Part shown: positions 1 to 35,113 of the stretch, in pieces
Numbering within the stretch: the stretch's first letter is position 1
How the letters are laid out: every line of letters starts with the position of its first letter
Source of the DNA: a virus
IMG/VR virus record: IMGVR_UViG_3300020442_003467
Location: 1 to 35,113 of that record
DNA length: 35,113 nucleotides
Reading direction: 5' to 3' (one strand)
Program-made: the position numbers and the translations under genes
Notes under the pieces: model-generated
The model's input: the letters and a program-made list of their open reading frames with translations, nothing else
Databases searched by the model: none
What the model was told of the DNA's origin: nothing

Positions 1-1335
1 GCTGCATCATCTGGAACCGTATCAACTGAACAAGCTCAAGCATCTGCTGGAAGCGCAACGCAATCTTCACAACAAGCTACAGTATCAACTGAACAGGCTC
101 AAGCTTCAGCAGGAAGTGCAACACAATCTTCTACAAGTGCTAGCACGTCTACTTCTTCAGCTACAGCTTCAGGGGATAGTGCAACTGCAGCAGCTTCATC
201 TGGAACTGTATCAACAGAACAAGCACAGGCTTCAGCGGGAAGTGCAACACAATCTTCACAACAAGCTACAGTATCAACTGAACAAGCTCAAGCATCTGCT
301 GGAAGCGCAACACAATCTAGTAATAGTGCAACTGCAGCAGCTTCATCTGGAACTGTATCAACTGAACAAGCTCAAGCATCTGCTGGAAGCGCAACAGCAT
401 CCAGTCAAAGTGCTGGACAATCGAGTACAAGTGCAAGTACTAGTACATCATCTGCGACTGCTTCTGGTAACAGTGCAACACAATCTAGTCAAAGTGCTGG
501 ACAATCGAGTACAAGTGCTAGCACGTCTACTTCTTCAGCTACTGCTTCTGGAAATTCTGCAACACAATCTAGTAATAGTGCAACGACTTCTACGCAGCAA
601 GCTCAAAACTCAGCCTCAAGTGCTACTTTAGCAGATTCATCTGGAACTGTATCAACTGAACAAGCTCAAGCATCTGCTGGAAGCGCAACACAATCCAGTC
701 AAAGTGCTGGACAATCTTCCACGAGTGCAAGCACATCTACTTCTTCTGCGACTGCTTCTGGTAACAGTGCAACACAATCTAGTCAGAGTGCTGGACAATC
801 TTCTACAAGTGCAAGTACATCTACTTCTTCAGCTACAGCTTCTGGTAACAGTGCAACACAATCTAGTAATAGTGCAACAACTTCAACTCAACAAGCTCAA
901 TCATCTTCTACAAGTGCAAGTACTAGTACATCATCTGCTACAGTATCTGGAACCTTTAAGACACAAGCTGAAGGATTTAAGACTCAAGCTGAAACATTTA
1001 AGACTCAAGCGTCAAGTTCAAAAGCAGAAGCAGAAGATCAAAAAGTTTTAACGATAGGATTTAAGACTCAAGCTGAAACATTTAAGACTCAAGCTGATAC
1101 AGCTAGATCAAGTGCTGTAGTTGCTAAGGGACAAGCTGAAACTGCAAAGACGCAAGCTGATGATGCTAAAGATGATGCAGAAAGTTTTGCGCAAGATGCA
1201 GACAATGCGAAGACTCAAGCAGAAACTGCAAAGACTCAAGCTGATACAGCAAAGACACAGGCTCAAACTGCAAAGACTCAATCTGAAACTGCAAGGACTC
1301 AATCTGAAAATGCAGCAACGGTTTCCACACAGCAA
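1..1335 (+). repeat. Ser/Ala/Gln-rich and heptad repeat region of the tail fibre gene
   Basis: Degenerate in-frame repeats. In 1-955, units such as ACTGAACAAGCTCAAGC and AGTGCAACACAATCTAGT recur many times. From about 955 to 1320, 21-base units of the type GCAAAGACTCAAGCTGAAACT encode heptads. This is where recombinational length changes would be expected. It also produces Leu/Gln/Lys-rich open frames on both strands that are not genes. Confidence 0.85.
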
Positions 1336-4072: not shown

Positions 4073-5233
4073 ATGCCTGTTCCCTCCACTGGAGAAATTT
4101 CATTAGGCAAAATTGGAAAAGAACTCAGATCGACTGGTACTGGAGACGATTACGATAACGGACCCGATACGCAAAATGCAACAAGTCTAACGCAAGCCTC
4201 GACTGGTGCTATAGATGCACTAAACACGTCTAATTCATCGGCTAATAGACCTGATGGATCTACGCCTCATAATATGAGCGAATTTTATGCGTACGACCAT
4301 AATCTTGCAGGCTTAAGTCCTCCATCGGCTCTATCGTATATCTCATCAGCTACTAATACCATACAGTTTACGTTTGATGAACCTGCTGGTGCCACTAGAG
4401 TGTACTTTTTTCAAGGCCCTGATTCATCGATAACTGGTTGGAGTGAAGGAAGTCACGTAGTTATTAACGGTGCACAGTATGCCACAGTAAATGCTTCATC
4501 AACAACCTCAGTAACTGTAGGCGGTTCATCTTCTGATAGGTGGTATAATCCCTCTATTCCTAGTGAACAAATGATTGTATTGGGACCAAACGATTATTTG
4601 GATCTCAAGTATAAATCTTACGATGGTAGTACGTTTAGCGGGTTTAGTAATTCTATTAGAGGTTGGACCTTACCTGGATCAGCCACTAATCCTAATCAAT
4701 CAGCTGCTGAGACAGATGAAGTAGAAATAGAATGGGACGAACCAACTGGAGGAGCAAACTCGTATCAGATTTTCTTCGGTCCTAATGTGAATCCAACTGG
4801 AAATATGGTATCAGGAAGTCAAGAAATAGATTTAAGAACTGGTCTAACTGCAGGAGCAACTTATTATTTTAGAGTTAGAGCCGTTAATGGTGGAGGAAAT
4901 CTTGGAGCTTACTCTGCTAATTTCGACGTACAAACACTTCCTGCAACACCTACTGGATTAACTGGTACAGGATTTACCACATCTGTTGATTTAGATTGGA
5001 ATGATAACGCAATTGCACCAGATAATTACACAGTTCAGTATAAGCTATCAACTGCAATGAGTTACACTACATTTGCTACAGTAACTGCTTCAGAAGACCT
5101 TGTAACTGGCTTATCTTCTGGTTTAACTTATAATTTTAGAGTTAAGGCTAACAACGGAGCTGGATCATCAGGATATGCAACCACTACCGTATCTACCAGT
5201 GGTGGAGGTGGCGGAAAGCCAAAAGGACCTTGA
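4073..5233 (+). CDS. Fibronectin type III repeat virion protein
   Basis: 386 residues. The first ~75 residues (STGEISLGKIGKEL, then MSEFYAYDHN) are an N-terminal module seen in marine phage structural proteins. From about residue 80 come probably three FN3-like beta-sandwiches. The last two carry the diagnostic strands LTAGATYYFRVRAVN and LSSGLTYNFRVKANN. The C-terminus is a flexible Gly-rich tail (GGGGGKPKGP). FN3 domains in phages usually decorate tail or fibre proteins and may bind carbohydrate. RBS GGAGA. The stop overlaps the next ATG (TGATG). Likely a virion surface or fibre protein; exact position unknown. Confidence 0.8.
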   Translation: MPVPSTGEISLGKIGKELRSTGTGDDYDNGPDTQNATSLTQASTGAIDALNTSNSSANRPDGSTPHNMSEFYAYDHNLAGLSPPSALSYISSATNTIQFTFDEPAGATRVYFFQGPDSSITGWSEGSHVVINGAQYATVNASSTTSVTVGGSSSDRWYNPSIPSEQMIVLGPNDYLDLKYKSYDGSTFSGFSNSIRGWTLPGSATNPNQSAAETDEVEIEWDEPTGGANSYQIFFGPNVNPTGNMVSGSQEIDLRTGLTAGATYYFRVRAVNGGGNLGAYSANFDVQTLPATPTGLTGTGFTTSVDLDWNDNAIAPDNYTVQYKLSTAMSYTTFATVTASEDLVTGLSSGLTYNFRVKANNGAGSSGYATTTVSTSGGGGGKPKGP

Positions 5234-5901
5234 TGATTTTCGAACCTTTAAACTGTGCATTAAGTCATCTTGATATGGACGACCTTATTCCCGAACATAA
5301 TATTAGACAAAGGAGTATGACGGACTTTCTAATTAAACCAATCGATATGTATATGTTTGAAATGCCATGGGCTTCGAAGTTATTTTGTAAAGAGTTAATA
5401 GAAAAGGCAGAAGCAGCAGATCTATGGGGAAATTATGTTTCAGGTCCTTTGACACACGATACATTATTAAAGGATTTAGATAGTGAATTGGATGAATCTT
5501 ATACAAAACATCTTATCAGTATTATGTCAACAGTATGTATACATTTTTATGACTTAGCTCATGATTGGAAATTTACAGATGTTTTAAATTATGTGGTAAA
5601 ATATTCTCAAAACGATTTAGAATTAATGGAACCTCATCACGATACTACTGATTTAACTTTTAATATGCCACTTAATGATAAACAAGAATTTGAAGGTGGT
5701 GGTACGTATTTTGTTAGACAAAAATATTTACATTACGGAACGGTTGGAAATTTGACCGTTCATCCAAGTCAAATTACCCACAAACACGGTGCTAAACCAG
5801 TATTTAAGGGTGCAAGATATGCTTTAATTTCACTTTGTAGCAATGAAGATAAAGTAAGATATAATTCAATTAAGGAGAACAACAATGAAAACGACTTTTG
5901 A
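5233..5901 (+). CDS. 2-oxoglutarate/Fe(II)-dependent oxygenase (prolyl/lysyl hydroxylase type)
   Basis: 222 residues from the ATG at 5233. A TTG one codon upstream is possible, but the ATG overlaps the preceding stop and has AAGGA at good spacing. Fe(II) ligands are visible: H135-x-D137 in EPHHDTTDL, the distal His H185 in THKHGAKPV, and R195 ten residues later as the 2-oxoglutarate anchor. Between them lies FEGGGTYF, typical of procollagen-lysyl/prolyl 4-hydroxylase enzymes. The expected reaction is hydroxylation of a protein side chain with decarboxylation of 2-oxoglutarate. It sits between fibre genes and the endolysin, close to a putative glycosyltransferase, suggesting virion protein modification. 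Fold confident; substrate unknown. Confidence 0.85.
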   Translation: MIFEPLNCALSHLDMDDLIPEHNIRQRSMTDFLIKPIDMYMFEMPWASKLFCKELIEKAEAADLWGNYVSGPLTHDTLLKDLDSELDESYTKHLISIMSTVCIHFYDLAHDWKFTDVLNYVVKYSQNDLELMEPHHDTTDLTFNMPLNDKQEFEGGGTYFVRQKYLHYGTVGNLTVHPSQITHKHGAKPVFKGARYALISLCSNEDKVRYNSIKENNNENDF

Positions 5902-6361
5902 TGAAATAATAGACGTAGTTCTACATCATGAGGGTGGTTACGTTAATGACCCGAAAGATCCCGGTGGAGAAACCAATTATGGAATTTCTAAAAGGGCTTA
6001 TCCAGATGTAGATATTAAAAACCTTACAGAAGATGGAGCAAAGGATATTTATAGAAGAGATTACTGGGAAAAAAATCGTTGCGAAGACCTTCCAGAAGAT
6101 CTACGTCATGTCTATTTTGATATGTGTGTTAACATGGGAAGAGGTAGAGCAACAAAAATAATGCAAGAAACTGCTAATGCTAAGGGTGCAGGTTTGAAGG
6201 TTGATGGAGGAATGGGTCCAAAAACAATCGGAGCACTGCAAAATGTTCGACTTCAAAGAGTTCGTGCTTATAGAGTAAAGTATTATGCAAATCTTGTTGA
6301 GAGAAAACCAGACCTTGAAAAATTTTATTATGGCTGGTTTAAACGAAGCTTAGAAGTTTAA
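5885..6361 (+). CDS. Endolysin, GH108 muramidase with peptidoglycan-binding domain
   Basis: 158 residues, beginning inside the end of the oxygenase gene with its own SD (AAGGAG). The N-terminus has the GH108 signature HHEGGYVNDPKDPGG followed by ETNYGIS; Glu16 in HEGGY is the expected catalytic acid. The second half (LKVDGGMGPKTIGAL, then RVKYYANLV and FYYGWFKR) matches the PG_binding_3 domain that normally follows GH108. Length fits the ZliS/secretion-activator muramidase family. No signal peptide or transmembrane segment is seen, so release would need a holin or a virion-associated role; no holin is obvious nearby. Confidence 0.92.
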   Translation: MKTTFDEIIDVVLHHEGGYVNDPKDPGGETNYGISKRAYPDVDIKNLTEDGAKDIYRRDYWEKNRCEDLPEDLRHVYFDMCVNMGRGRATKIMQETANAKGAGLKVDGGMGPKTIGALQNVRLQRVRAYRVKYYANLVERKPDLEKFYYGWFKRSLEV

Positions 6362-6837: not shown

Positions 6838-9800
6838 ATGTCTAAATCATTTGGAAAGAATATTGCGTATAGTGTAATTTACGGGGTAGATGCTGTTGTA
6901 ATAGATGATGATTTTATAGAATCATTTATTCCAAAATCTAAAGTCTTGTCAGAAAGCAGTAAAGTTCAAGGAGTTTACAGCGATGAAGGATTGTACGACT
7001 TTTATAATGGGTTTAGTAGCTATAAAAAAGTTACAAAGGAAAAAGCAGCAAAGGTTTTGGGTTGGAAAATTGTTGACTATATTATAGATAAAAGGGCCAA
7101 CGATCCATTCTTTGAATTGAATATGATGGTAGATGATGGTTCTGGAATGAAGGGTAGAGCGAATACGGTTTCCTATGGCGGTACGGTATTAACTGGTGAT
7201 AAATCACTAGATTCAGGTGATTACAAGTATATGAAGGAGATGGATCAGATTGTTAACGCACTAGGATGGGATGTGATAAAATATATGGGCGTTGGTCCTA
7301 ATAGAAAGAGTAAAGTTGTAGTAATTCCTTCTAAGGATATGGAAAAGATGGCAGACAAAGTAAATGAATCTGTTATTCGTATTCGTTACAATGAAGAATT
7401 CGGTGCACCACCTGGAATGCTTCCTTCTCCAAGTAGAAAGGGTGTAAAGAAAGCGAAGAAGAGAAAAGATAGATCAATATATTCTGAACAAGAAAATAAT
7501 ATTGAAAAGTTGGTAGCAATTTATCCTGGTAGATTTCAACCCTTTGGACCACATCATAAGAAGTCATACGAATTTTTAAAGTCTAGATTTGATATTGTTT
7601 ATATAGCCACTAGTGATAAATCTGGAGGATCTAGACACCCAATGAATTTTTCCCAGAAGAAAAAACACATGATGAAAATGGGAATACCGTCTTCAGCTAT
7701 AGTAAAGGAAAGACAAGTATATGTTCCTAAAAAATTAATGTCAAAATTTGATGGAGATACAACTGCTTTTGTTTTTGGAGTTGGTGCAAAAGATGAAGGA
7801 AGATTAACTGGCGGAAAATATTTTAAACAGTATAGAAAAAATTATAATAGATTAAAGGGTTTTGATCATCATGGGTACACATTAGAAATACCACATACTA
7901 GCATACGAGTGGGTGGAATGGAAATAAGCGGTACAACAATGAGAAAACTTTTAGGCTCTGAAGAATTTGATATTAAATTAAAGAAAAAGTTTTTTAAGAA
8001 AATGTTTGGATATTTTGATCAGAAAACCTTTGAAATGTTTACTGGTGTTTTTAAAGAAGAAATAAAATTAGATGTAGAAATAGGTGATACAATTTTAGTT
8101 GGTAGATTTAAAAATAAAAAGATGAAGGTTAAGTCTATTGGAAAAGATAAACATGGTATGCCAACAATAAACGGAAGAAAAGTAGTAACATTTAGAAAAC
8201 TACAAGAAGATAAAAAAACATATAAAGCAATAAATAAAGATTCTGGAAAAGTAGCAACGTTCGATAGCGAAGCTGCAAGAGATGCTGCAATAGATAAAGG
8301 AACACATTCTTCAGTTGTAACCAAAAAACAAAAAGCTAAGAAAAAATTTAAAGCACCAAAAATTAAGATACCTAGCTTTGCTGATTTACAAAAGAAAAAA
8401 GCAGAAAAGAAAGCAAAGTATGGCAATAAACCACGTAAACCAAATATTGTTGATGGTGTAGATGTAATTAGAAACGAAGATGATTTAGAACATTTTAAAT
8501 ATAAGTTTACGAAAGAAGCTGAAACAGTTGATAATGTAAATGATTATGGCGACCGTGTAGCAGAACAGTATAGACGTCAAAAAGAAAATATGCCAGAAGA
8601 TCAACGTAGACAATTAGAAGACGATGCACAAAGCTGGAAAAAACTTGGAGGTTATGAAGCAATACAGGATGCAATAAGAAATGGTGAGATCTCAGAGCAA
8701 GATATAAGAGACAGAAACGAAAGAATGAGTGAAACTGCACATACAAGTGTGGTAAAAATTGAACAACCTATAGAACGTGGAATTGTTATTCCAACAGAAG
8801 ATGTCGATACATTTTTAGATAGATTTGTAGAGGGTGAAATGGTTGAAATACCAGATGAAAGTGGCCACGGTTCCAGTGGGTTTAGTTTAAGTGCACGTAC
8901 AGCTAGATTTTTTAGTAAACCAACAAACGATTATGAAGATGAAGCGTCTATTCTTATACGTATAGAACCAAACGAAAACGGTGAAGTAAGAGGTTTGTAT
9001 ATAGACGGAGAAGATAATGACTTTGCCAGTGAACAAGAACTAATAAGGAGTTCTAAATCTAAAGCAAAGGTTAAATCTATAGAAAGGGTAAAATATCCAA
9101 GTGGAAAAATGGTGATTATAGTAACGCTACAAGAACCAAATGAATTGACAGAATCCACAGTAGATTTGGTTGATAAAGAAGTTGGAGATGAGCTCTCTAA
9201 AAAATATTTGGAAGGACCTTTAAATCCAGATCCTGGAAGTGTAAAGGAAAATTATACATTTGGTAAAGATTGGATTCCAACAAGTTTAGCACAAAGAAAA
9301 AAGATGAAGAGAATTCATCAAAAATTAAATCGTAGTATAAGAGAACAAAAGGAGTTATTACTTATGGGAGGAGCCTATGGTCACATGGCACACCCGTTTG
9401 ATGATTATGGATTAACCTTCGGAGAACTGAAGGATATAATAGACTTAGGGTTACAGGGTAAATTAGACAAAGAAGAAGCCGTCACAGAAAAATTAGACGG
9501 TCAAAATATAATGATTTCTGCAATTGATGGTATAGCTGTTGCTGCAAGAAATAAGGGTGATTTAAAAAGAGGTGGTATGGATTTAAAGGGTGTAAGGGCA
9601 AAATTTGCAAATCACATACAGAGTGTTAAAGATGCATTTGTATTTTCTATGAAGGATATTGCGTCATCAGTTGAAAAAATGAGTAAGAAAGATCAAGAGT
9701 CGTTATTTGCTAACGGTAAAAACTGGGCAAACATAGAAATAATATATCCAGAAAATAAAAACGTTATAGATTATGATGGTCCAGCAACCATTGTTTTTCA

Positions 9801-10596
9801 TGGTATATTAAAATATAACGAAGCTTGGACTCCATCTGGAGAAGTAAAATCTGGAGGTGCAAAATTAGCAGCTATAATTAATAAAGTTAACAAGAATATA
9901 AAGACAAAGTTTGCATTTAAGGGTCCAAATGTAATTACTATGCATAAGGATAAAGATTATTCAGCTAAGAGGTCAAAATATATCGGCGCTTTGAACAAGT
10001 TACAGAATATATATAGATTAAAGGATAGTGATGAATTATCGTTATATCATCAACATTTTTGGTTGGAATACATATTAGCAGGAGCAAACTCCTCAGATTA
10101 CAAGAATATCCCAGACAATGTATTATATCCTCTTATGAAAAGATGGGCATTTTCTGATAAAAGTTATAAGATGACACAAATAAACAAGTTAAAGGACAAT
10201 CATCCAAAGTTTGTAGATTGGGTAAAATCAACAGAAAAATTAGATCATGCAAAAATGCTAAAGGATAATATGAGACCATTTGAAGAAATATTCTTTGGAG
10301 TTGGAGCAGAAATATTATCAAATGCTAGTAACTATTTAAGCGTTAATCCAAGTAAAACTGCAAAAAAACTAAGAGATGATTTGGCAAAGGCTGCTAAAAC
10401 TCTAATGGCCAAAAAGGATTTTTCTAATGTCGATAAACTTAAAGCACAATTGAAAAAACTAAAAGCAATGCCAGGATTAGAAAAAGCAGCACCAACTGAA
10501 GGATTAGTTTTCAAATATAAGGGTAAAGTTTATAAGTTTACAGGATTCTTTGCACCGATTAATCAAATTTTAGGATTAGAAAAATTTAGCAGGTAA
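6838..10596 (+). CDS. Multidomain protein: nucleotidylyltransferase + ADP-ribosyltransferase + RNA-ligase-like
   Basis: 1252 residues, SD TTGGAGAG. N-terminal ~200 residues unrecognised. Residues 226-372: HIGH-type nucleotidylyltransferase (GRFQPFGPHHKK at 231-242, with first motif His replaced but H240 kept; ISGTTMRKLL at 363-372), resembling NMN adenylyltransferases. About 415-465: a small SH3-like module (GDTILVGRFKNKK), then a Lys-rich linker. About 640-765: an R-S-E ADP-ribosyltransferase pattern (R647 in IERGI; FSLS at 682-685; E732-Q-E734), spaced as in the VIP2/Alt class. About 850-1250: ligase-type domain with K885 in EKLDG, NWANIEIIYP at 962-971 and EGLVFK at 1221-1226 with later Lys. 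Upstream of the terminase, it could be an Alt-like injected protein. The ligase and transferase motifs are strong; ART is a by-eye call. Confidence 0.75.
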   Translation: MSKSFGKNIAYSVIYGVDAVVIDDDFIESFIPKSKVLSESSKVQGVYSDEGLYDFYNGFSSYKKVTKEKAAKVLGWKIVDYIIDKRANDPFFELNMMVDDGSGMKGRANTVSYGGTVLTGDKSLDSGDYKYMKEMDQIVNALGWDVIKYMGVGPNRKSKVVVIPSKDMEKMADKVNESVIRIRYNEEFGAPPGMLPSPSRKGVKKAKKRKDRSIYSEQENNIEKLVAIYPGRFQPFGPHHKKSYEFLKSRFDIVYIATSDKSGGSRHPMNFSQKKKHMMKMGIPSSAIVKERQVYVPKKLMSKFDGDTTAFVFGVGAKDEGRLTGGKYFKQYRKNYNRLKGFDHHGYTLEIPHTSIRVGGMEISGTTMRKLLGSEEFDIKLKKKFFKKMFGYFDQKTFEMFTGVFKEEIKLDVEIGDTILVGRFKNKKMKVKSIGKDKHGMPTINGRKVVTFRKLQEDKKTYKAINKDSGKVATFDSEAARDAAIDKGTHSSVVTKKQKAKKKFKAPKIKIPSFADLQKKKAEKKAKYGNKPRKPNIVDGVDVIRNEDDLEHFKYKFTKEAETVDNVNDYGDRVAEQYRRQKENMPEDQRRQLEDDAQSWKKLGGYEAIQDAIRNGEISEQDIRDRNERMSETAHTSVVKIEQPIERGIVIPTEDVDTFLDRFVEGEMVEIPDESGHGSSGFSLSARTARFFSKPTNDYEDEASILIRIEPNENGEVRGLYIDGEDNDFASEQELIRSSKSKAKVKSIERVKYPSGKMVIIVTLQEPNELTESTVDLVDKEVGDELSKKYLEGPLNPDPGSVKENYTFGKDWIPTSLAQRKKMKRIHQKLNRSIREQKELLLMGGAYGHMAHPFDDYGLTFGELKDIIDLGLQGKLDKEEAVTEKLDGQNIMISAIDGIAVAARNKGDLKRGGMDLKGVRAKFANHIQSVKDAFVFSMKDIASSVEKMSKKDQESLFANGKNWANIEIIYPENKNVIDYDGPATIVFHGILKYNEAWTPSGEVKSGGAKLAAIINKVNKNIKTKFAFKGPNVITMHKDKDYSAKRSKYIGALNKLQNIYRLKDSDELSLYHQHFWLEYILAGANSSDYKNIPDNVLYPLMKRWAFSDKSYKMTQINKLKDNHPKFVDWVKSTEKLDHAKMLKDNMRPFEEIFFGVGAEILSNASNYLSVNPSKTAKKLRDDLAKAAKTLMAKKDFSNVDKLKAQLKKLKAMPGLEKAAPTEGLVFKYKGKVYKFTGFFAPINQILGLEKFSR

Positions 10597-10599
10597 AAT

Positions 10600-11154
10600 A
10601 TGAATAGTGAAGATAAAGCTCTAAAAGCCATATTAGAGGGAAAACCAGTTACTAAACGAGTAATGGTTGGTTATGAAGGTAAAAAACAAAAAAGCGGTGA
10701 TCAAAAAAGTAGATTAACTGATATTATGGCTGAGGCTAGAATGCCTATGTTTTGTCCTAAGTGTGACAAGATTATGAAAAATACAAAGTTAGATGGTAAA
10801 ATGTGGAGATTGTATGATCATTGTTTTGATTGTCAAATACAAGTAGAGCACAAAATGAGAATAGATGGTACATTTGAATTATGGGAAAAATCTAGGTATC
10901 TTAGAAATAAAGAATCAATTATAAAAGAACAGATAGGGTCAATAGAAGAGTGGAAAAATCAAGGAGATATGTCAGTAGTTGAACCAATTAATGTTGATAG
11001 TGGAGCTGTTCACATAGAAAAATATCAGAGAGATAGTAAACTTTTAGAAATAGCCGAAGAAGCATTGGTTGATTTAGGAGGAAGTCTCAAACAAATTAGA
11101 GAACGTATAAAGGAAGTCGATGCCGAGCTCGAAGCAAATAAAAGACCAGATTAA
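10600..11154 (+). CDS. Zinc-ribbon protein in the small-terminase position
   Basis: 184 residues, start 3 bases after the preceding stop. Four cysteines form a treble-clef/zinc-ribbon pattern: MFCPKCDK at residues ~50-57 and DHCFDCQ at ~76-82. A long charged helical C-terminus (SKLLEIAEEALVDL, then KQIRERIKEVDAELEANK) should form a coiled coil. The 3' end overlaps the terminase gene by 35 bases. In T4 the gene before gp17 is gp16, the small terminase; position and coiled coil fit a DNA-recognition partner, but the zinc ribbon is not typical and I see no sequence match to gp16. Confidence 0.7.
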   Translation: MNSEDKALKAILEGKPVTKRVMVGYEGKKQKSGDQKSRLTDIMAEARMPMFCPKCDKIMKNTKLDGKMWRLYDHCFDCQIQVEHKMRIDGTFELWEKSRYLRNKESIIKEQIGSIEEWKNQGDMSVVEPINVDSGAVHIEKYQRDSKLLEIAEEALVDLGGSLKQIRERIKEVDAELEANKRPD

Positions 11155-12691
11155 AACTGAATATGTAAAGTGTGCTTTAGATCCAGTTTACTTTATGCGG
11201 GAGTACTGTTTTATACAGCATCCAGTAAAGGGTAAAATGAAATTTGACCTATACCCCTTTCAAGAAAAAACATTACGGGATTTTAAAGAACATGACTATA
11301 ACGTAATATTGAAAGCAAGACAGCTGGGTATATCCACATTGTCTGCAGGTTACTCCCTATGGCTAATGAATTTTCATGCGGATAAAAATATACTTGTCAT
11401 TGCAACTAAGCAGGAGGTAGCTAAAAACCTAGTAACTAAAGTTAGGGTTATGCATAAAGAGTTACCAAATTGGTTGAAACAAGGATGTGCAGAAGATAAT
11501 AAACTTTCACTTAGATATAATAACGGTTCACAAATAAAGGCAATTTCATCAACTGGAGAGGCTGGTAGATCTGAAGCTCTATCACTTCTGATTATAGATG
11601 AGGCTGCGTTCATTAAAAACATAGACGAAATATGGGCAGCTTCTCAACAGACGCTAGCAACTGGTGGTAAATGTATTGCACTTTCTACTCCAAACGGTAT
11701 GGGTAATTGGTTTCATAAAACTTGGACAGATGCAGAAGAGGGAGCAAATAGTTTTAATTTTATACGATTACATTGGACAGTTCATCCAAACAGAGAACAA
11801 GATTGGAGAGATGAGCAAAATAAGTTGTTAGGTCCTGATATGGCAGCGCAAGAATGTGATTGTGATTTTATAAGTTCTGGTCAATCAGTAATTCCTGGAG
11901 AATTAATAAAAGAAATGCAAGATCATTCTGTTTGTACACCCATTGAAAAACGATATGAGGATGCTTTATGGATATGGAAACATCCAGAACCAAACAAAAA
12001 CTATTTACTGTCTGCTGACGTTGCAAGAGGAGATGGAGCTGATTTTTCAGCATTTCATATATTTGATTTGACAACTTTAGAACAGGTAGCCGAATATAGA
12101 TCTAAGGAAGATACTACGAGATACGCTGGAATATTGATGGCGATGGCTACAGAATATAACGATGCTCTTCTAGTTGTGGAAAATAATAACGTAGGATGGG
12201 CAGTATTACAAACCATTATAGATAGAGATTACAGAAATCTATTTTGGATGAAAAAAGACTTGAAATATGTAGATTCTAAAACACAATATACAAATAGGTA
12301 TAGAGGTGAAAATAAAATGATGGTACCTGGATTTACTACATCAAGCAAAAGTAGACCATTAATTATTGAAAATTTATCTAAGTTTTGTAGAGATAAATCT
12401 GTAAAAATAAACTCTATTAGAACTATAGATGAATTATATGTTTTCATATTTAATAATGGTAAGGCAGAAGCTTTAAAAGGATATAATGATGATTTAGTCA
12501 TGAGCCTAGCAATTGGCTTGTGGATAAGGGAAACAGCTCTTAGACTTCATGAAGAAAATCTAAGAGTCACTAGAGATACCATGGCAAAAATGGATGGTAA
12601 CTCTGGAGTCTACAAGTTTGAGGAAGAAGACGATTATGGTTGGGAACAACGAGTAGGCGATAAGAAAGAATCACTAACTTGGTTAATATAA
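11120..12691 (+). CDS. terL: Terminase large subunit (gp17-like)
   Basis: 523 residues (T4 gp17 is about 610). It packages phage DNA into proheads with an N-terminal ATPase and a C-terminal nuclease that cuts concatemers. ATPase: KARQLGIST at 65-73 is a deviant Walker A, with the Lys at the front rather than in GKT; LLIIDEAAF holds Walker B Asp160-Glu161; the coupling motif lies in ALSTPNG. Nuclease: LSADVARGDGADFSAFHIFD carries the first metal Asp (D300), with a later acidic cluster near YNDDLVMSLAIGLW. AAGGA precedes the ATG, which lies inside the upstream gene. It is followed one base later by the portal gene, so sheath and tube genes have been moved away from the T4 order. Confidence 0.95.
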   Translation: MPSSKQIKDQIKTEYVKCALDPVYFMREYCFIQHPVKGKMKFDLYPFQEKTLRDFKEHDYNVILKARQLGISTLSAGYSLWLMNFHADKNILVIATKQEVAKNLVTKVRVMHKELPNWLKQGCAEDNKLSLRYNNGSQIKAISSTGEAGRSEALSLLIIDEAAFIKNIDEIWAASQQTLATGGKCIALSTPNGMGNWFHKTWTDAEEGANSFNFIRLHWTVHPNREQDWRDEQNKLLGPDMAAQECDCDFISSGQSVIPGELIKEMQDHSVCTPIEKRYEDALWIWKHPEPNKNYLLSADVARGDGADFSAFHIFDLTTLEQVAEYRSKEDTTRYAGILMAMATEYNDALLVVENNNVGWAVLQTIIDRDYRNLFWMKKDLKYVDSKTQYTNRYRGENKMMVPGFTTSSKSRPLIIENLSKFCRDKSVKINSIRTIDELYVFIFNNGKAEALKGYNDDLVMSLAIGLWIRETALRLHEENLRVTRDTMAKMDGNSGVYKFEEEDDYGWEQRVGDKKESLTWLI

Positions 12692-12692
12692 A

Positions 12693-14477
12693 ATGGCAAA
12701 ACAAGATACATTTACTGATCGAATAAGAAGACTTTTTTCTTCCAACGTTATCGTAAGAAACGTAGGTGGTAAAAAGTTAAAAATAGTAGATACTAGTCAA
12801 ATGCAGGCTGGATCTAAAACATTAATGGACAGATATACAAAACTGTATACTACACAAGCTGGACACGGCGGGTACATGGGTTACAGTGGAGAATTGGCAA
12901 AAGCTCAGAGGATTTCTCTATTTAGAGATTATGAAGCAATGGATGATGACGCAATCCTGTCTTCTGCTTTAGACGTATACGCTGATGAATCAACAATGAA
13001 ATCTGAATATGGTAATGTATTAGAAATAAAGTCTAATAATACCCAAATACAAGAAATATTACACAATTTATTTTATGATATATTAAATATAGAATTTAAT
13101 CTTTGGCCATGGATTCGTAACATGTGTAAGTATGGTGATTTCTTTTTGAATTTAGAAATAGCTGAAAACTATGGAATTGTTAATGTGTTACCATTATCTC
13201 CATACGATGTTTCTAGAATCGAAGGAGCAGATCCTGAAAATCCAAATGAAGTTAAATTTATATTAGATGCAACTGATCCTAGAAATTATGCTGGAAATTC
13301 TAACAGAAAAGAATTTGAAAATTTTGAAATAGCTCACTTTAGATTGTTATCAGATTCAAACTATATACCTTATGGTAAGTCAATGGTTGAGGGTGGTAGA
13401 AGAGTTTGGAAACAATTGAGTCTTATGGAAGACGCTATGTTAATTCATAGAATTATGAGAGCACCAGAAAAACGAGTCTTTAAGGTTGACATTGGTAACT
13501 TACCACCTGGAGAAGTTGATTCTTACATGAAAAGAATTATTGATAAGATGAAAAAGGCTCCAGTTATAGACGAACAATCTGGTGAATACAATTTAAAATA
13601 TAATATGCAGAATCTAACAGAGGATTTTTATCTTCCAGTTAGAGGTGGAGATTCTGGTACCAATATTGAATCATTACCAGGATTGACTTATGAAGCAGTA
13701 GAAGATATTGAATATCTAAGGAACAAACTGTTAGCATCATTAAAAATACCAAAAGCATTTTTAGGATATGAAGAACAAGTTGGATCAAAAGCAACACTAG
13801 CAGCAGAAGATGTAAGGTTTGCTAGAACTATTGAAAGAATACAAAGGATTGTAATAAGTGAATTGACAAAAATTGCTGTGGCACACTTATATTCTCAGGG
13901 ATATACAGATTCGGCACTAGTAGATTTTGAATTGGAGTTAACAAATCCTTCTACAATATATGAACAAGAGAGATTAGATCTTTGGGAGAAAAAGAATACT
14001 ATCGCCAGAGATATGAAATCTGAAGCGTTAGTTTCCCAGCAGTGGATATATGACAACGTATTCAACTTTAGTGATGAAGAAGTAAAGAAGATTAAAGAAG
14101 AAGTAATTGAAGATAAAAAGCAGACTTTTAGACATCAATCTATTGAAGGTGAAGGACACGATCCAGCACAACCAGCTCAAGAAGGACAATTAAAAGGTGC
14201 AGAAGGCTCACAAAAAGGAATGGAAGACGAAGATAAGGATGAAAATGATAGAGATAAGGAAGACAGGGACACCTATGGAGTTAGAGATGTTTTAGGTAAA
14301 CATGACTATTTGCACTCTAATGAAAGAGGAGAAGATGATTCTATACGTCATAAGTTTAGAAAAAGTCCTTTAGCATTATCCCATTTTGATAAGATGAAAT
14401 CTCATTTTGAGAAAAAGGAGCAGAAGATACTGAACGAGGTTGAAGATATAGAGAAGGATTTAAAAGAAAAGTCCTAA
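12693..14477 (+). CDS. Portal vertex protein (gp20-like)
   Basis: 594 residues (T4 gp20 is about 524). Twelve copies form the ring through which DNA is packaged and on which the prohead assembles. Family-typical stretches are present: MDDDAILSSALDVYADEST, then YGDFFLNLEI, VLPLSPYDVSRIEG, ALLIH-type region EDAMLIHRIMRAPEKRVF, and the stem/crown segment LRNKLLASLKIPKAFLGYEE. The C-terminal ~110 residues are a highly charged extension (EGQLKGAEGSQKGMEDEDKD) longer than in T4. The ATG is one base after the terminase stop with no clear SD, suggesting coupled translation. Confidence 0.95.
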   Translation: MAKQDTFTDRIRRLFSSNVIVRNVGGKKLKIVDTSQMQAGSKTLMDRYTKLYTTQAGHGGYMGYSGELAKAQRISLFRDYEAMDDDAILSSALDVYADESTMKSEYGNVLEIKSNNTQIQEILHNLFYDILNIEFNLWPWIRNMCKYGDFFLNLEIAENYGIVNVLPLSPYDVSRIEGADPENPNEVKFILDATDPRNYAGNSNRKEFENFEIAHFRLLSDSNYIPYGKSMVEGGRRVWKQLSLMEDAMLIHRIMRAPEKRVFKVDIGNLPPGEVDSYMKRIIDKMKKAPVIDEQSGEYNLKYNMQNLTEDFYLPVRGGDSGTNIESLPGLTYEAVEDIEYLRNKLLASLKIPKAFLGYEEQVGSKATLAAEDVRFARTIERIQRIVISELTKIAVAHLYSQGYTDSALVDFELELTNPSTIYEQERLDLWEKKNTIARDMKSEALVSQQWIYDNVFNFSDEEVKKIKEEVIEDKKQTFRHQSIEGEGHDPAQPAQEGQLKGAEGSQKGMEDEDKDENDRDKEDRDTYGVRDVLGKHDYLHSNERGEDDSIRHKFRKSPLALSHFDKMKSHFEKKEQKILNEVEDIEKDLKEKS

Positions 14478-19436: not shown

Positions 19437-21026
19437 ATGTCTTATAACAAAGAAATAAAAGACGTAATGGGCGGATACAATCCACATAATGTGCTTTTAG
19501 ATTCCTCTCGTAAATTGGTTAATAAGTGGGAGCCTACCGGCTTACTTGAAGGCCTAAAAAACGAATCTGAGACAAGCGGAATGGCTGTATTGCTTGAAAA
19601 TCAGGCAAAGCAGTTGATCGACGAAGCTTCTCAGGTGGGAACTTCAGCAAACCAAGAACAGTGGAGTGGCGTTGCTCTTCCATTAGTTCGTAGGATTTTT
19701 GCTGAATTATCAGCACAGGAATTTGTTTCTGTTCAACCTATGAACCTACCAAGTGGTCTTATTTTCTACTTGGATTTCAAATATGGTTCAACCCAACAGG
19801 CTGGAAACTTGCATGCTAAAAATGCAGACCTTCATGGTGATACTTCCAGTTCTGGTGATCCTTCCGGCGGTCTATATGGCGGCGGAAAATGGGGTTACTC
19901 TATTAATGACGCAGTAGCAAGCGCAGCAGGAACTGTTGGCGCTGCTTCTTACGATGACATCCGTGGTGATGCGAATCTTTCTAGTTCACTAGCTGGACTT
20001 AAGAAAGTTTCTTTCACAGCACCTACTGATGGCGATATCGATGGAGCAAAAGCATGGGCAATTACTGGCTCTGCTGCTGGCGACATTGGAGTATTCTACC
20101 CAGCATTCACATCATACAGCGGTACTACTGTTAGTATGATTTTCTCTGGATCTTTATCCAGTTCACAATCAGTTGGTGTGCTTTATCATAAGCAACCAGC
20201 AGATACCTCTCGTGGCGATTTCGAAACCACATTTGCTTCAGAAGGATCTAATCCTGAAGAATCTAATGCTGGTATTCCAGAAGTTGACATTCAAATGCGT
20301 TCAGTCGCAATCACTGCTAAAACTCGTAAGTTGAAAGCTGTATGGACTCCTGAGCTTGCTCAAGATCTTAATGCTTATCATGCTGTCGACGCTGAAGCAG
20401 AATTGACTGCTATGCTTTCTGAGTATGTCACCATGGAAATCGACATGGAAATCATTGACATGTTAAAGCTTAACGCGAACGCTAAAACCGAGCGTTGGAC
20501 TGCGGCAGTTGGTGAAGAATGGGATGGCTCAAAATTTGTAGCAACAGCTGCTAACGCATCTGCTTACACAAAAGGCGAGTGGTTCCAAACTCTTGGTAAC
20601 AAGATACAGTCAGTATCTAATGCAATCCACAAGAAAACTCTTAGAGGTGGTGCAAACTTCATCGTGATTTCACCTGAAGTTGCTACAATTCTTGAGTCTA
20701 TTCCTGGATATGCTACAGATTCAGATGGTGATCCAACCAAGAACTACGCTATGGGCGTACAGAAAGTTGGTCTATTAAACAATAGATTTAACGTGTTTAA
20801 GAATCCTTACTTACAAGATGATCAGATTCTTGTTGGTTTCCGCGGAGCTCAGTTCTTAGAAACTGGTGCTGTATATGCGCCTTACGTTCCGTTGATCTTA
20901 ACACCTGTTGTTTACGATCCAACTAACTTCACCCCAAGACGCGGTGTAATGACTCGTTACGCTAAGAAGATGGTTCGCAACGAATTCTACGGCTTAGTTA
21001 ACGTATCTAGATCTGACTTAGTCTAA
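19437..21026 (+). CDS. Major capsid protein (gp23-like)
   Basis: 529 residues (T4 gp23 is about 521). It forms the hexamers of the head shell. The N-terminal ~63 residues are the cleavable propeptide; QLIDE then ASQVG gives an expected gp21 cut after Glu63, close to T4's Glu65. After it come VRRIFAELSAQEFVSVQPMN and LIFYLDFKYG, hallmarks of T4-like capsid proteins. Later signatures are IPEVDIQMRSVAITAKTRKL, FIVISPEVATILES and the end MTRYAKKMVRNEFYGLVNV. SD TTGGAGA. Codon use is slightly more GC-rich than neighbours, as expected of the most abundant protein. A strong terminator follows. Confidence 0.97.
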   Translation: MSYNKEIKDVMGGYNPHNVLLDSSRKLVNKWEPTGLLEGLKNESETSGMAVLLENQAKQLIDEASQVGTSANQEQWSGVALPLVRRIFAELSAQEFVSVQPMNLPSGLIFYLDFKYGSTQQAGNLHAKNADLHGDTSSSGDPSGGLYGGGKWGYSINDAVASAAGTVGAASYDDIRGDANLSSSLAGLKKVSFTAPTDGDIDGAKAWAITGSAAGDIGVFYPAFTSYSGTTVSMIFSGSLSSSQSVGVLYHKQPADTSRGDFETTFASEGSNPEESNAGIPEVDIQMRSVAITAKTRKLKAVWTPELAQDLNAYHAVDAEAELTAMLSEYVTMEIDMEIIDMLKLNANAKTERWTAAVGEEWDGSKFVATAANASAYTKGEWFQTLGNKIQSVSNAIHKKTLRGGANFIVISPEVATILESIPGYATDSDGDPTKNYAMGVQKVGLLNNRFNVFKNPYLQDDQILVGFRGAQFLETGAVYAPYVPLILTPVVYDPTNFTPRRGVMTRYAKKMVRNEFYGLVNVSRSDLV

Positions 21027-33824: not shown

Positions 33825-33825
33825 T

Positions 33826-35113
33826 GTGCCAGTAACTAGTAGACAAACGAGCAGAAATACATCAAGAACGACTACGTATAACACGTCTAGAACTACGGTT
33901 TTCAATACCTCGTGGAATACATCTAGGATTACCGTGTATACAACATATTGGAACACTACTAGGAGTACGAGTAGAACTACATCTAAGTCGACTAATAGAA
34001 GTACAGCTGTACAGCATAACACTACGACTGAGTATACGACTAGTACTACGTTTGCAACTGAAACTTTAAAGTCTACTACTACAACGTATACAACAAATAA
34101 GTCGACAACTAGAAGTACAAATACGACTACTACCTATACAACTACCTATACAACTACTTGGCAAACTTACAGACCGACAAGTACCATAACGAATAAGAGT
34201 ACGACTACTGTATATAATACAAGCAAAAGTACCAATCATAGTACGACCACTGAATACACTACGTATTTTCAAACTAGCAAAACTACAACATTCGTAACAC
34301 AATACACAACAACATTTGCAACTAGTAGAAGTACCAATCATAATACGATCACTGAGTATACAACATATTTTCAAACTAGCAGCATTACGAATAAATCTAC
34401 GAATACAACTACTTCGTGGCAAACTTCTAGCATTACGAACAAATCTACGAATACAACTACTTCGTGGCAAACTTCTAGCATTACGAATAAATCTACGAAT
34501 ACAACTACATCATGGCAGACCAGTAGTATAACAAACAAAACTACGTCTACGACTACTTCGTGGCAAACTTCTAGTATTACGAATAAAACTACGACAACTG
34601 AAACAACTTATAGCACTAATCGAAGTACTAACACGACTACTGAGTACACTACGTATTTTGAAACCAGTAGAACAACAAATAAAAATACTGTAACACAATA
34701 CACTACGTATTTTCAGACTAGCAGAAGTACAAATAGAAATACAACGACTGAGTATACGACATATTTTCAAACTAGTAGAAGTACAAATACTGTAACGCAA
34801 TACACTACGTATTTTCCAACAAGTAGAACCACTAATAGAGCTACAACGACCGAGTATACGACATATTTTCAAACTAGTAGAAGTACAAATAGAAATACAA
34901 CTACTCAATACACCACATATTTTCAGACAAGTAGATCTACCAATACTGTAACTCAGTATACAACTACGTTTGCAACTAGCAGAACTACTAATACAACGAC
35001 TCAGTATACAACTTCATTTGCAACTAGTAGATCTACTAACACTACGACCACGTATACGACATATTTTCAAACTAGTAGGACTACAAATAGAAATACGACT
35101 ACTCAGTACACTA
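33826..35113 (+). CDS. Thr-rich repeat protein (3' partial), possibly continuing the preceding gene
   Basis: 429 codons open to the window end with no stop. A GTG start at 33826 has AGGA (33815-33818) seven bases upstream and lies one base after the TAG of the preceding gene, so restart is plausible. The start (VPVTSRQTSRNTSRTTTYNT) resembles the segment just before Hint domain 1 (TTTYNTSRTTTYATYYTTSW). The body has ~18-residue units (TEYTTYFQTSRSTNRNTT) and 16-residue units (SITNKSTNTTTSWQTS). Its frame is +1 relative to the upstream gene; one base less in the AAAA at 33818-33821 would join the two as one protein. Function as for the upstream repeat protein: unknown, probably an appendage. 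Confidence 0.75.
   Translation, partial: MPVTSRQTSRNTSRTTTYNTSRTTVFNTSWNTSRITVYTTYWNTTRSTSRTTSKSTNRSTAVQHNTTTEYTTSTTFATETLKSTTTTYTTNKSTTRSTNTTTTYTTTYTTTWQTYRPTSTITNKSTTTVYNTSKSTNHSTTTEYTTYFQTSKTTTFVTQYTTTFATSRSTNHNTITEYTTYFQTSSITNKSTNTTTSWQTSSITNKSTNTTTSWQTSSITNKSTNTTTSWQTSSITNKTTSTTTSWQTSSITNKTTTTETTYSTNRSTNTTTEYTTYFETSRTTNKNTVTQYTTYFQTSRSTNRNTTTEYTTYFQTSRSTNTVTQYTTYFPTSRTTNRATTTEYTTYFQTSRSTNRNTTTQYTTYFQTSRSTNTVTQYTTTFATSRTTNTTTQYTTSFATSRSTNTTTTYTTYFQTSRTTNRNTTTQYT
34381..34572 (+). repeat. Four tandem 48-base units
   Basis: Units start at 34381, 34429, 34477 and 34525 and each encodes SITNKSTNTTTSWQTS or a close variant. The first two differ by a single base and the third departs only near its end, while the fourth differs at many synonymous sites. 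This indicates a recent duplication inside an otherwise codon-scrambled array. Confidence 0.9.

What the first reader, a model, noticed from the sequence alone, without database searches (positions are those of the whole stretch)
6838..10596. Possible NAD-centred three-enzyme fusion: nucleotidylyltransferase, ADP-ribosyltransferase, RNA ligase
One protein carries a GRFQP/ISGTTMR nucleotidylyltransferase (NMNAT-like), an R647/FSLS/EQE ADP-ribosyltransferase pattern and an EKLDG/EGLVFK ligase-type domain. NMNATs make NAD, ADP-ribosyltransferases consume it, and T4 ADP-ribosyltransferase ModB is known to attach NAD-capped RNA to proteins. A ligase in the same chain suggests RNA or NAD handling tied to host takeover, or tRNA repair. 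Location before the terminase fits an Alt-like protein packaged in the head. The combination is seen; the linked pathway is inference.
Basis: partly seen in the sequence, partly recalled or inferred. Interest (0 to 1): 0.85.

Follow-up and report, generated by a model that had tools for sequence, protein, structure and literature searches.

The report
Three-enzyme phage protein beside terminase gene
A marine T4-like virus of bacteria makes one long protein that joins an NAD-synthase-like enzyme, a protein-modifying ADP-ribosyltransferase and an RNA-ligase-like enzyme; it belongs to a large, undescribed family of mix-and-match proteins encoded next to the DNA-packaging motor and probably carried inside the virus head.

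Summary
AlphaFold2 on 22 relatives gives a confident model (pLDDT 83); the top PDB matches are R-S-E ADP-ribosyltransferases (Foldseek E 4.7e-7, Z up to 12.9), with R647, S683/S685 and E732/E734 at the catalytic motifs. No Pfam ART model finds it. The nucleotidylyltransferase is NMNAT-like by profile (E 2.5e-6), though its HxGH is GPHH. The C-terminal domain is RNA-ligase-like: 14/20 relatives hit Pfam RNA_ligase weakly, and all five ligase motifs are kept in at least 115 of 116 relatives; its fold was not tested.

The NAD-centred pathway is not supported. The conserved unit is nucleotidylyltransferase plus ligase (over 550 IMG/VR loci encode the ligase), with terminase downstream in 87/88. 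The ART is an optional cassette: relatives 85-89% identical in the ligase lack it, and others carry a kinase, HD, exonuclease, acyltransferase or protease domain. Best reading: an Alt-like, virion-packaged 'polyvalent' protein whose ART modifies host proteins at infection while the core acts on RNA ends or nucleotides. Packaging is inferred. New variant of a known kind.

The parts
6838..10596 (+). Whole gene: 1252-aa multidomain protein, N domain - nucleotidylyltransferase - SH3/KOW-like module - linker - ART - short module - ligase-like domain
   Evidence: module mapping
6958..7380 (+). N domain (residues 41-181), unknown fold, conserved in most relatives but shuffled in position (after the nucleotidylyltransferase in distant clades)
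7474..8067 (+). NMNAT-like HIGH-superfamily nucleotidylyltransferase (residues 213-410); GRFQPFGPHH at 7528-7557, ISGTTMR at 7924-7944
   Evidence: profile match to NMNAT MJ0541 E 2.5e-6; Pfam CTP_transf_like; PHROG 395 cytidyltransferase
8050..8205 (+). Small basic module (residues 405-456; KOW/SH3-like by eye only), recurs at other positions and as stand-alone 95-102 aa frames in relatives
8206..8532 (+). Lys/Pro-rich linker and start of the ART cassette (residues 457-565), shared by ART-bearing relatives
8533..9153 (+). R-S-E ADP-ribosyltransferase domain (residues 566-772): helices then core; R647 at 8776-8778, FSLS S683/S685 at 8884-8892, ExE E732-E734 at 9031-9039
   Evidence: alignment of 23 relatives; AF2 model pLDDT 82.6, pTM 0.82; Foldseek and VIA-align matches to ARTs
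9229..9363 (+). Short mobile module YTFGKDWIPTSLAQRKKMKRIHQKLNRSIR (residues 798-842), found at different positions in relatives
9337..10593 (+). RNA-ligase-like nucleotidyltransferase domain (residues 834-1252); EKLDG with K885 at 9487-9501, EGLVFK at 10498-10515
   Evidence: alignment; 14 of 20 relatives hit Pfam RNA_ligase, best E 4.2e-4; motifs in 115-116 of 116
5885..6361 (+). Endolysin gene upstream (context)
   Evidence: PHROG 315, E 3e-55
11120..12691 (+). Terminase large subunit downstream (context); downstream of this gene in 87 of 88 relatives with enough flank
   Evidence: PHROG 2, E 8.7e-53; synteny
12693..14477 (+). Portal protein (context)
   Evidence: PHROG 213, E 2.1e-64
19437..21026 (+). 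Major head protein (context)
   Evidence: PHROG 138, E 4.5e-77

Best explanation
It is an Alt-like 'polyvalent' effector: a multidomain protein encoded beside the head and packaging genes, probably packaged into the head and delivered with the DNA. Its conserved core (N domain, NMNAT-like nucleotidylyltransferase, RNA-ligase-like domain) most likely acts on RNA ends or nucleotides in the infected cell. The ART is an added cassette that would use NAD+ to mono-ADP-ribosylate host proteins, probably on arginine (ExE motif). Shown: intact gene, ART fold and catalytic motifs, NMNAT-like and ligase motifs, optional and shuffled modules, fixed place before terminase. Inferred: activity of each domain, late expression, packaging, injection, targets.
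For: ART fold and motifs. NMNAT-like profile match. Ligase motifs and Pfam RNA_ligase hits. Terminase downstream in 87/88, portal in 86/88, and head genes follow in the window. Interchangeable enzyme modules of disparate activity: kinase and HD, C45 acyltransferase and DEDD exonuclease, zinc protease. This is the defining style of polyvalent proteins (PMC5512222), and ARTs beside terminase or portal genes have been read as head-packaged (PMC9503650). NMNAT-like proteins were detected in purified virions of T4-like cyanophages (PMC10665884, PMC9602691, PMC9146016), and the S-SCSM1 one matches the profile made here.
Against: No virion proteomics for this family; the cyanophage proteins are only distant relatives without a ligase, and their authors allow carry-over. 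No MuF, portal or metallopeptidase domain, the usual packaging partners, was found in the protein. The ligase fold was not predicted and its Pfam scores are below cutoff. The GPHH change may alter or abolish NMNAT activity.
Confidence: 0.6

Rival explanations
1. RNA-repair enzyme made during infection, not packaged: the ligase-like core reseals tRNA cut by host defence nucleases, accessory kinase and HD domains heal the ends, and the ART is side cargo.
For: Best library label of the ligase is RNA_ligase. The kinase of L056/L057 resembles Zeta/AAA_33 and polynucleotide kinase. The HD of L038 matches the HD end of phage tRNA nucleotidyltransferase. Such repair sets are common in large phages (PMC7824862).
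Against: The gene sits in the morphogenesis cluster, not with early genes. Most members lack kinase or HD. An NMNAT-like domain is not a usual repair partner. The zinc protease, acyltransferase and ART accessories have no place in repair.
Confidence: 0.22
2. NAD-centred machine: the NMNAT-like domain makes NAD+, the ART spends it, and the ligase uses or attaches NAD-linked products (for instance NAD-capped RNA).
For: All three domains are in one chain in the window and L004-L006 and, reordered, in L150, L152, L155, L157 and L159.
Against: The ART is missing in nearly all relatives while the other two domains stay together. No NAPRTase in five longer relatives. GPHH in place of HxGH in most members. 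No sequence evidence for RNA attachment.
Confidence: 0.1
3. Mainly structural or DNA-binding head component whose enzyme domains are relics.
For: Fixed place before terminase; Lys-rich linkers and short basic modules; the GPHH change.
Against: Ligase and ART catalytic residues are kept across wide divergence, which relics would not show, and accessory enzymes come and go.
Confidence: 0.08

Closest known systems
Polyvalent proteins of phages and conjugative elements (Iyer et al. 2017, PMC5512222)
   Same: Several enzyme domains of unlike chemistry in one chain, mixed between relatives, ART among them, encoded near terminase and portal genes
   Different: Core of nucleotidylyltransferase plus ligase; text searches of that paper returned no cytidylyl- or adenylyltransferase and mention RNA ligases only as separate phage systems; no MuF or metallopeptidase found here
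Phage T4 Alt, ModA and ModB
   Same: ART with Arg, FxxS/SxS and ExE motifs in a T4-like phage; Alt is head-packaged; T4-type ARTs are among the viral fold matches
   Different: Sequence similarity is not significant; Alt and the Mods are not fused to a nucleotidylyltransferase or ligase; here the ART is a cassette inside a larger chain
NMNAT-like virion proteins of T4-like cyanophages (S-SCSM1 ORF91, S-SZBM1_140, S-CREM2 ORF154)
   Same: HIGH-superfamily nucleotidylyltransferase in a T4-like marine phage, seen in virion proteomes; S-SCSM1 ORF91 matches the profile made here
   Different: S-SCSM1 ORF91 has no ligase or ART match, lies between other virion-protein genes rather than directly before terminase, and has a GRFNPPTVGH motif
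T4 RNA ligase 2 / Pfam RNA_ligase (PF09414)
   Same: EKxxGxN motif I and the later ligase motifs
   Different: Scores below cutoff; long segment between motifs III and IV; fused to other enzymes
Microcystis phage Mel-JY01 'cytidylyltransferase like protein' (WWT39297.1)
   Same: Same nucleotidylyltransferase plus ligase-like core, upstream of terminase, 34-39% identical
   Different: 639 aa; no N domain found, no ART

Membership tests
R-S-E ADP-ribosyltransferases (C3/VIP2/Alt class) | ART fold | tested here: met
   AF2 model pLDDT 82.6; Foldseek PDB E 4.7e-7; VIA-align Z 12.9, rmsd 3.9 over 170 residues for the best
R-S-E ADP-ribosyltransferases (C3/VIP2/Alt class) | Arg on the first core strand, (S)xS motif, ExE or QxE | tested here: met
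   R647, S683/S685, E732/E734, conserved in 23 relatives apart from S685 in two
R-S-E ADP-ribosyltransferases (C3/VIP2/Alt class) | NAD+-dependent transferase activity | not testable with these tools
   Needs an assay
T4 Alt/ModA/ModB family | Significant sequence similarity to T4 Alt, ModA or ModB | tested here: not met
   Profile against T4 proteins: ModB ranks 1 of 55 but P 0.025; Alt and ModA no match
NMNAT (NadM/NadR-like adenylyltransferases) | Profile similarity and GTxxR signature | tested here: met
   MJ0541 E 2.5e-6; ISGTTMR
NMNAT (NadM/NadR-like adenylyltransferases) | HxGH catalytic motif | tested here: not met
   GPHH in the window and 47 of 71 relatives; HxGH in 22
RNA ligases (Rnl2-like, PF09414) | Motifs I, Ia, III, IV, V | tested here: met
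   115-116 of 116 relatives
RNA ligases (Rnl2-like, PF09414) | Curated Pfam score | tested here: not met
   17.7 bits against 27 for the window; 14 of 20 relatives match, best E 4.2e-4, and no relative's score was shown above cutoff
RNA ligases (Rnl2-like, PF09414) | Ligase fold | not tested
Polyvalent proteins | Disparate catalytic domains in one chain, shuffled among relatives | tested here: met
Polyvalent proteins | Genomic link to phage packaging genes | tested here: met
   Terminase downstream in 87 of 88
Polyvalent proteins | Carried in the virion and injected | not testable with these tools
   Needs virion proteomics of an isolate and an injection assay

The most novel reading that the evidence does not exclude
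The nucleotidylyltransferase-ligase pair is a new coupled enzyme, for example one that regenerates NAD+ from the NMN that an NAD-using ligase would release, or that puts a nucleotide on RNA ends and then ligates them, delivered from the virion together with swappable effector cassettes such as the ART.
Probability: 0.12. Interest if true: 0.85.

Novelty: new variant of a known kind. Interest (0 to 1): 0.62.

Why it matters
A family whose ligase is found at more than 550 loci in IMG/VR, with an isolated phage (Mel-JY01) carrying its minimal form, joins an NMNAT-like enzyme to an RNA-ligase-like one at a fixed place beside the packaging motor and swaps further enzymes in and out. It would extend the polyvalent-protein idea to marine T4-like phages with a new core, adds an ART family that Pfam does not recognise, and makes it testable whether such phages deliver host-modifying enzymes from the head.

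Tried and rejected
A first AlphaFold2 run on the ART with 4 near-identical sequences failed (pLDDT 36); it was repeated with 22 relatives. Pfam, PHROG and PDB sequence searches of the ART alone found no ART family, and tblastn in phage records found nothing. Two IMG/VR scans with ART linker or helix patterns found only the three near copies. Profile-profile comparison with T4 proteins was too weak to decide anything by itself (one search was run in the wrong alignment mode): ART to ModB ranks 1 of 55, ligase to Rnl2 ranks 2 of 55. PDB sequence profiles for the ligase gave only chance hits. KptA/Tpt1-type RNA 2'-phosphotransferase was considered and set aside, because the motifs here are R-S-E with ExE (KptA's active site is recalled from general knowledge, not tested). 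NAD salvage: no NAPRTase in five relatives' contigs. Cellular origin: only seven hits in genome contigs, all in metagenome-assembled genomes and possibly stray phage contigs. No paper on this fusion was found in the open library. The ART's nearest solved structures are toxins by fold only; no toxin function is claimed.

Full report
What is there. Window 6838-10596 is one frame of 1252 aa in a T4-like morphogenesis cluster: endolysin upstream; terminase, portal, head protease and major head protein downstream. The window is a 35-kb virus record.

The ART. Sequence libraries do not recognise it. Relatives were collected step by step from IMG/VR; 23 aligned sequences, 48-92% identical to the window, keep IERG, FSxS and ExE wherever they cover them (L179 and L185 have FSIR). 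With 22 of them AlphaFold2 gives pLDDT 82.6 and pTM 0.82. Foldseek's PDB hits are R-S-E ADP-ribosyltransferases from rank 1 (E 4.7e-7), VIA-align Z reaches 12.9, and the viral library returns phage ARTs, including T4-type enzymes and head-morphogenesis fusions. In the model R647 falls on the first core strand, S683/S685 on the FSxS strand, and E732/E734 just before the last three core strands. ExE usually marks arginine-directed ARTs (general knowledge; not tested here).

The nucleotidylyltransferase. The profile of 19 relatives finds archaeal NMNAT MJ0541 (E 2.5e-6), then other NMNATs and phosphopantetheine adenylyltransferases. The signature [IV]SGTxxR is kept. The other signature, HxGH, reads GPHH in 47 of 71 distinct relatives and HxGH in 22, so substrate and activity are open.

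The ligase-like domain. Motif I (EKxDG), Ia (ARN), III, IV (EGxxF) and V (KxTG) are present in 115-116 of 116 distinct relatives. 14 of 20 aligned members match Pfam RNA_ligase, best E 4.2e-4, weakly. T4 Rnl2 aligns through motif I but not significantly. RNA ligase is the best label; DNA-ligase or capping-type chemistry is not excluded.

Architecture. Module profiles over all loci show a constant pair, nucleotidylyltransferase and ligase, usually with the N domain, whose position is shuffled. The ART was seen in only 3 of about 97 open frames with both core domains from scans not aimed at it (before removing redundancy). Relatives with ligases 85-89% identical (L008, L010, L012) lack it. In distant ART-bearing clades, ART identity to the window (54-61%) is close to that of the ligase (44-50%) and nucleotidylyltransferase (48-53%), so the ART looks old in the family and often lost or exchanged. 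Elsewhere the gene carries a Zeta/PNK-like kinase or an HD domain, a C45 acyltransferase or DEDD exonuclease, or a zinc protease. Two short basic modules recur at different places.

Context. Terminase lies downstream in 87 of 88 relatives with enough flank, median 919 bases away. Microcystis phage Mel-JY01 has the minimal 639-aa form, annotated only as 'cytidylyltransferase like protein'.

Mechanism. The closest concept is the polyvalent protein: disparate enzyme domains in one chain, encoded with packaging genes, thought to enter the host with the DNA (PMC5512222). ARTs near terminase and portal genes are read the same way (PMC9503650). NMNAT-like proteins have been detected in purified virions of three T4-like cyanophages, though authors allow that they may be carry-over; one of them matches the profile made here (E 1.5e-6 in a four-sequence search). 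So packaging and an Alt-like role for the ART are likely but inferred. The role of the core is the main unknown; RNA-end repair is the leading specific guess, helped by the kinase and HD accessories.

Observation confirmed. The three labels hold with different strengths: ART strong, nucleotidylyltransferase good at superfamily level, ligase good on motifs only. The NAD-centred pathway is not supported by the family's architecture.

Noticed in passing
L159:2020-5688 and L159:7380-8153 (also L058-L060): The ligase looks split: the main frame lacks the motif I region (profile positions 1-61), while a separate downstream frame carries the N domain plus ligase positions 4-63 ending just after EKLDGQN; either a rearrangement scar or a ligase working in two pieces.
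   Followed up: partly
L058:3462-3767, L059:2995-3279, L060:789-1073, L061:826-1131, L139:7969-8277, L159:8156-8440: The small basic module (residues 405-456) also exists as a stand-alone 95-103 aa frame downstream, strongly conserved (82-84% identical to the window in the four compared), function unknown.
   Followed up: partly
L139:4177-7248; L118:1450-5058; L159:2020-5688; L056:7377-11084; L038:767-3832: Other members of the same gene family carry a DEDD exonuclease, an ATP-dependent zinc-protease domain, a C45 acyltransferase-like domain, a Zeta/PNK-like kinase and an HD domain respectively.
   Followed up: partly
window 5230-5901: 2OG-Fe(II) oxygenase-like gene (PHROG 61, E 1.6e-12) just upstream of the endolysin.
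   Followed up: no
window 116-1051 and 33825-35113: Both ends of the window read as repetitive low-complexity sequence (short repeated peptides in overlapping frames), perhaps parts of repetitive tail or fibre genes; not analysed.
   Followed up: no
window 10600-11154: 184-aa protein with a Cys-rich CPKC...CFDC stretch, no PHROG match, between this gene and terminase; a relative is present downstream in 79 of 88 loci.
   Followed up: no
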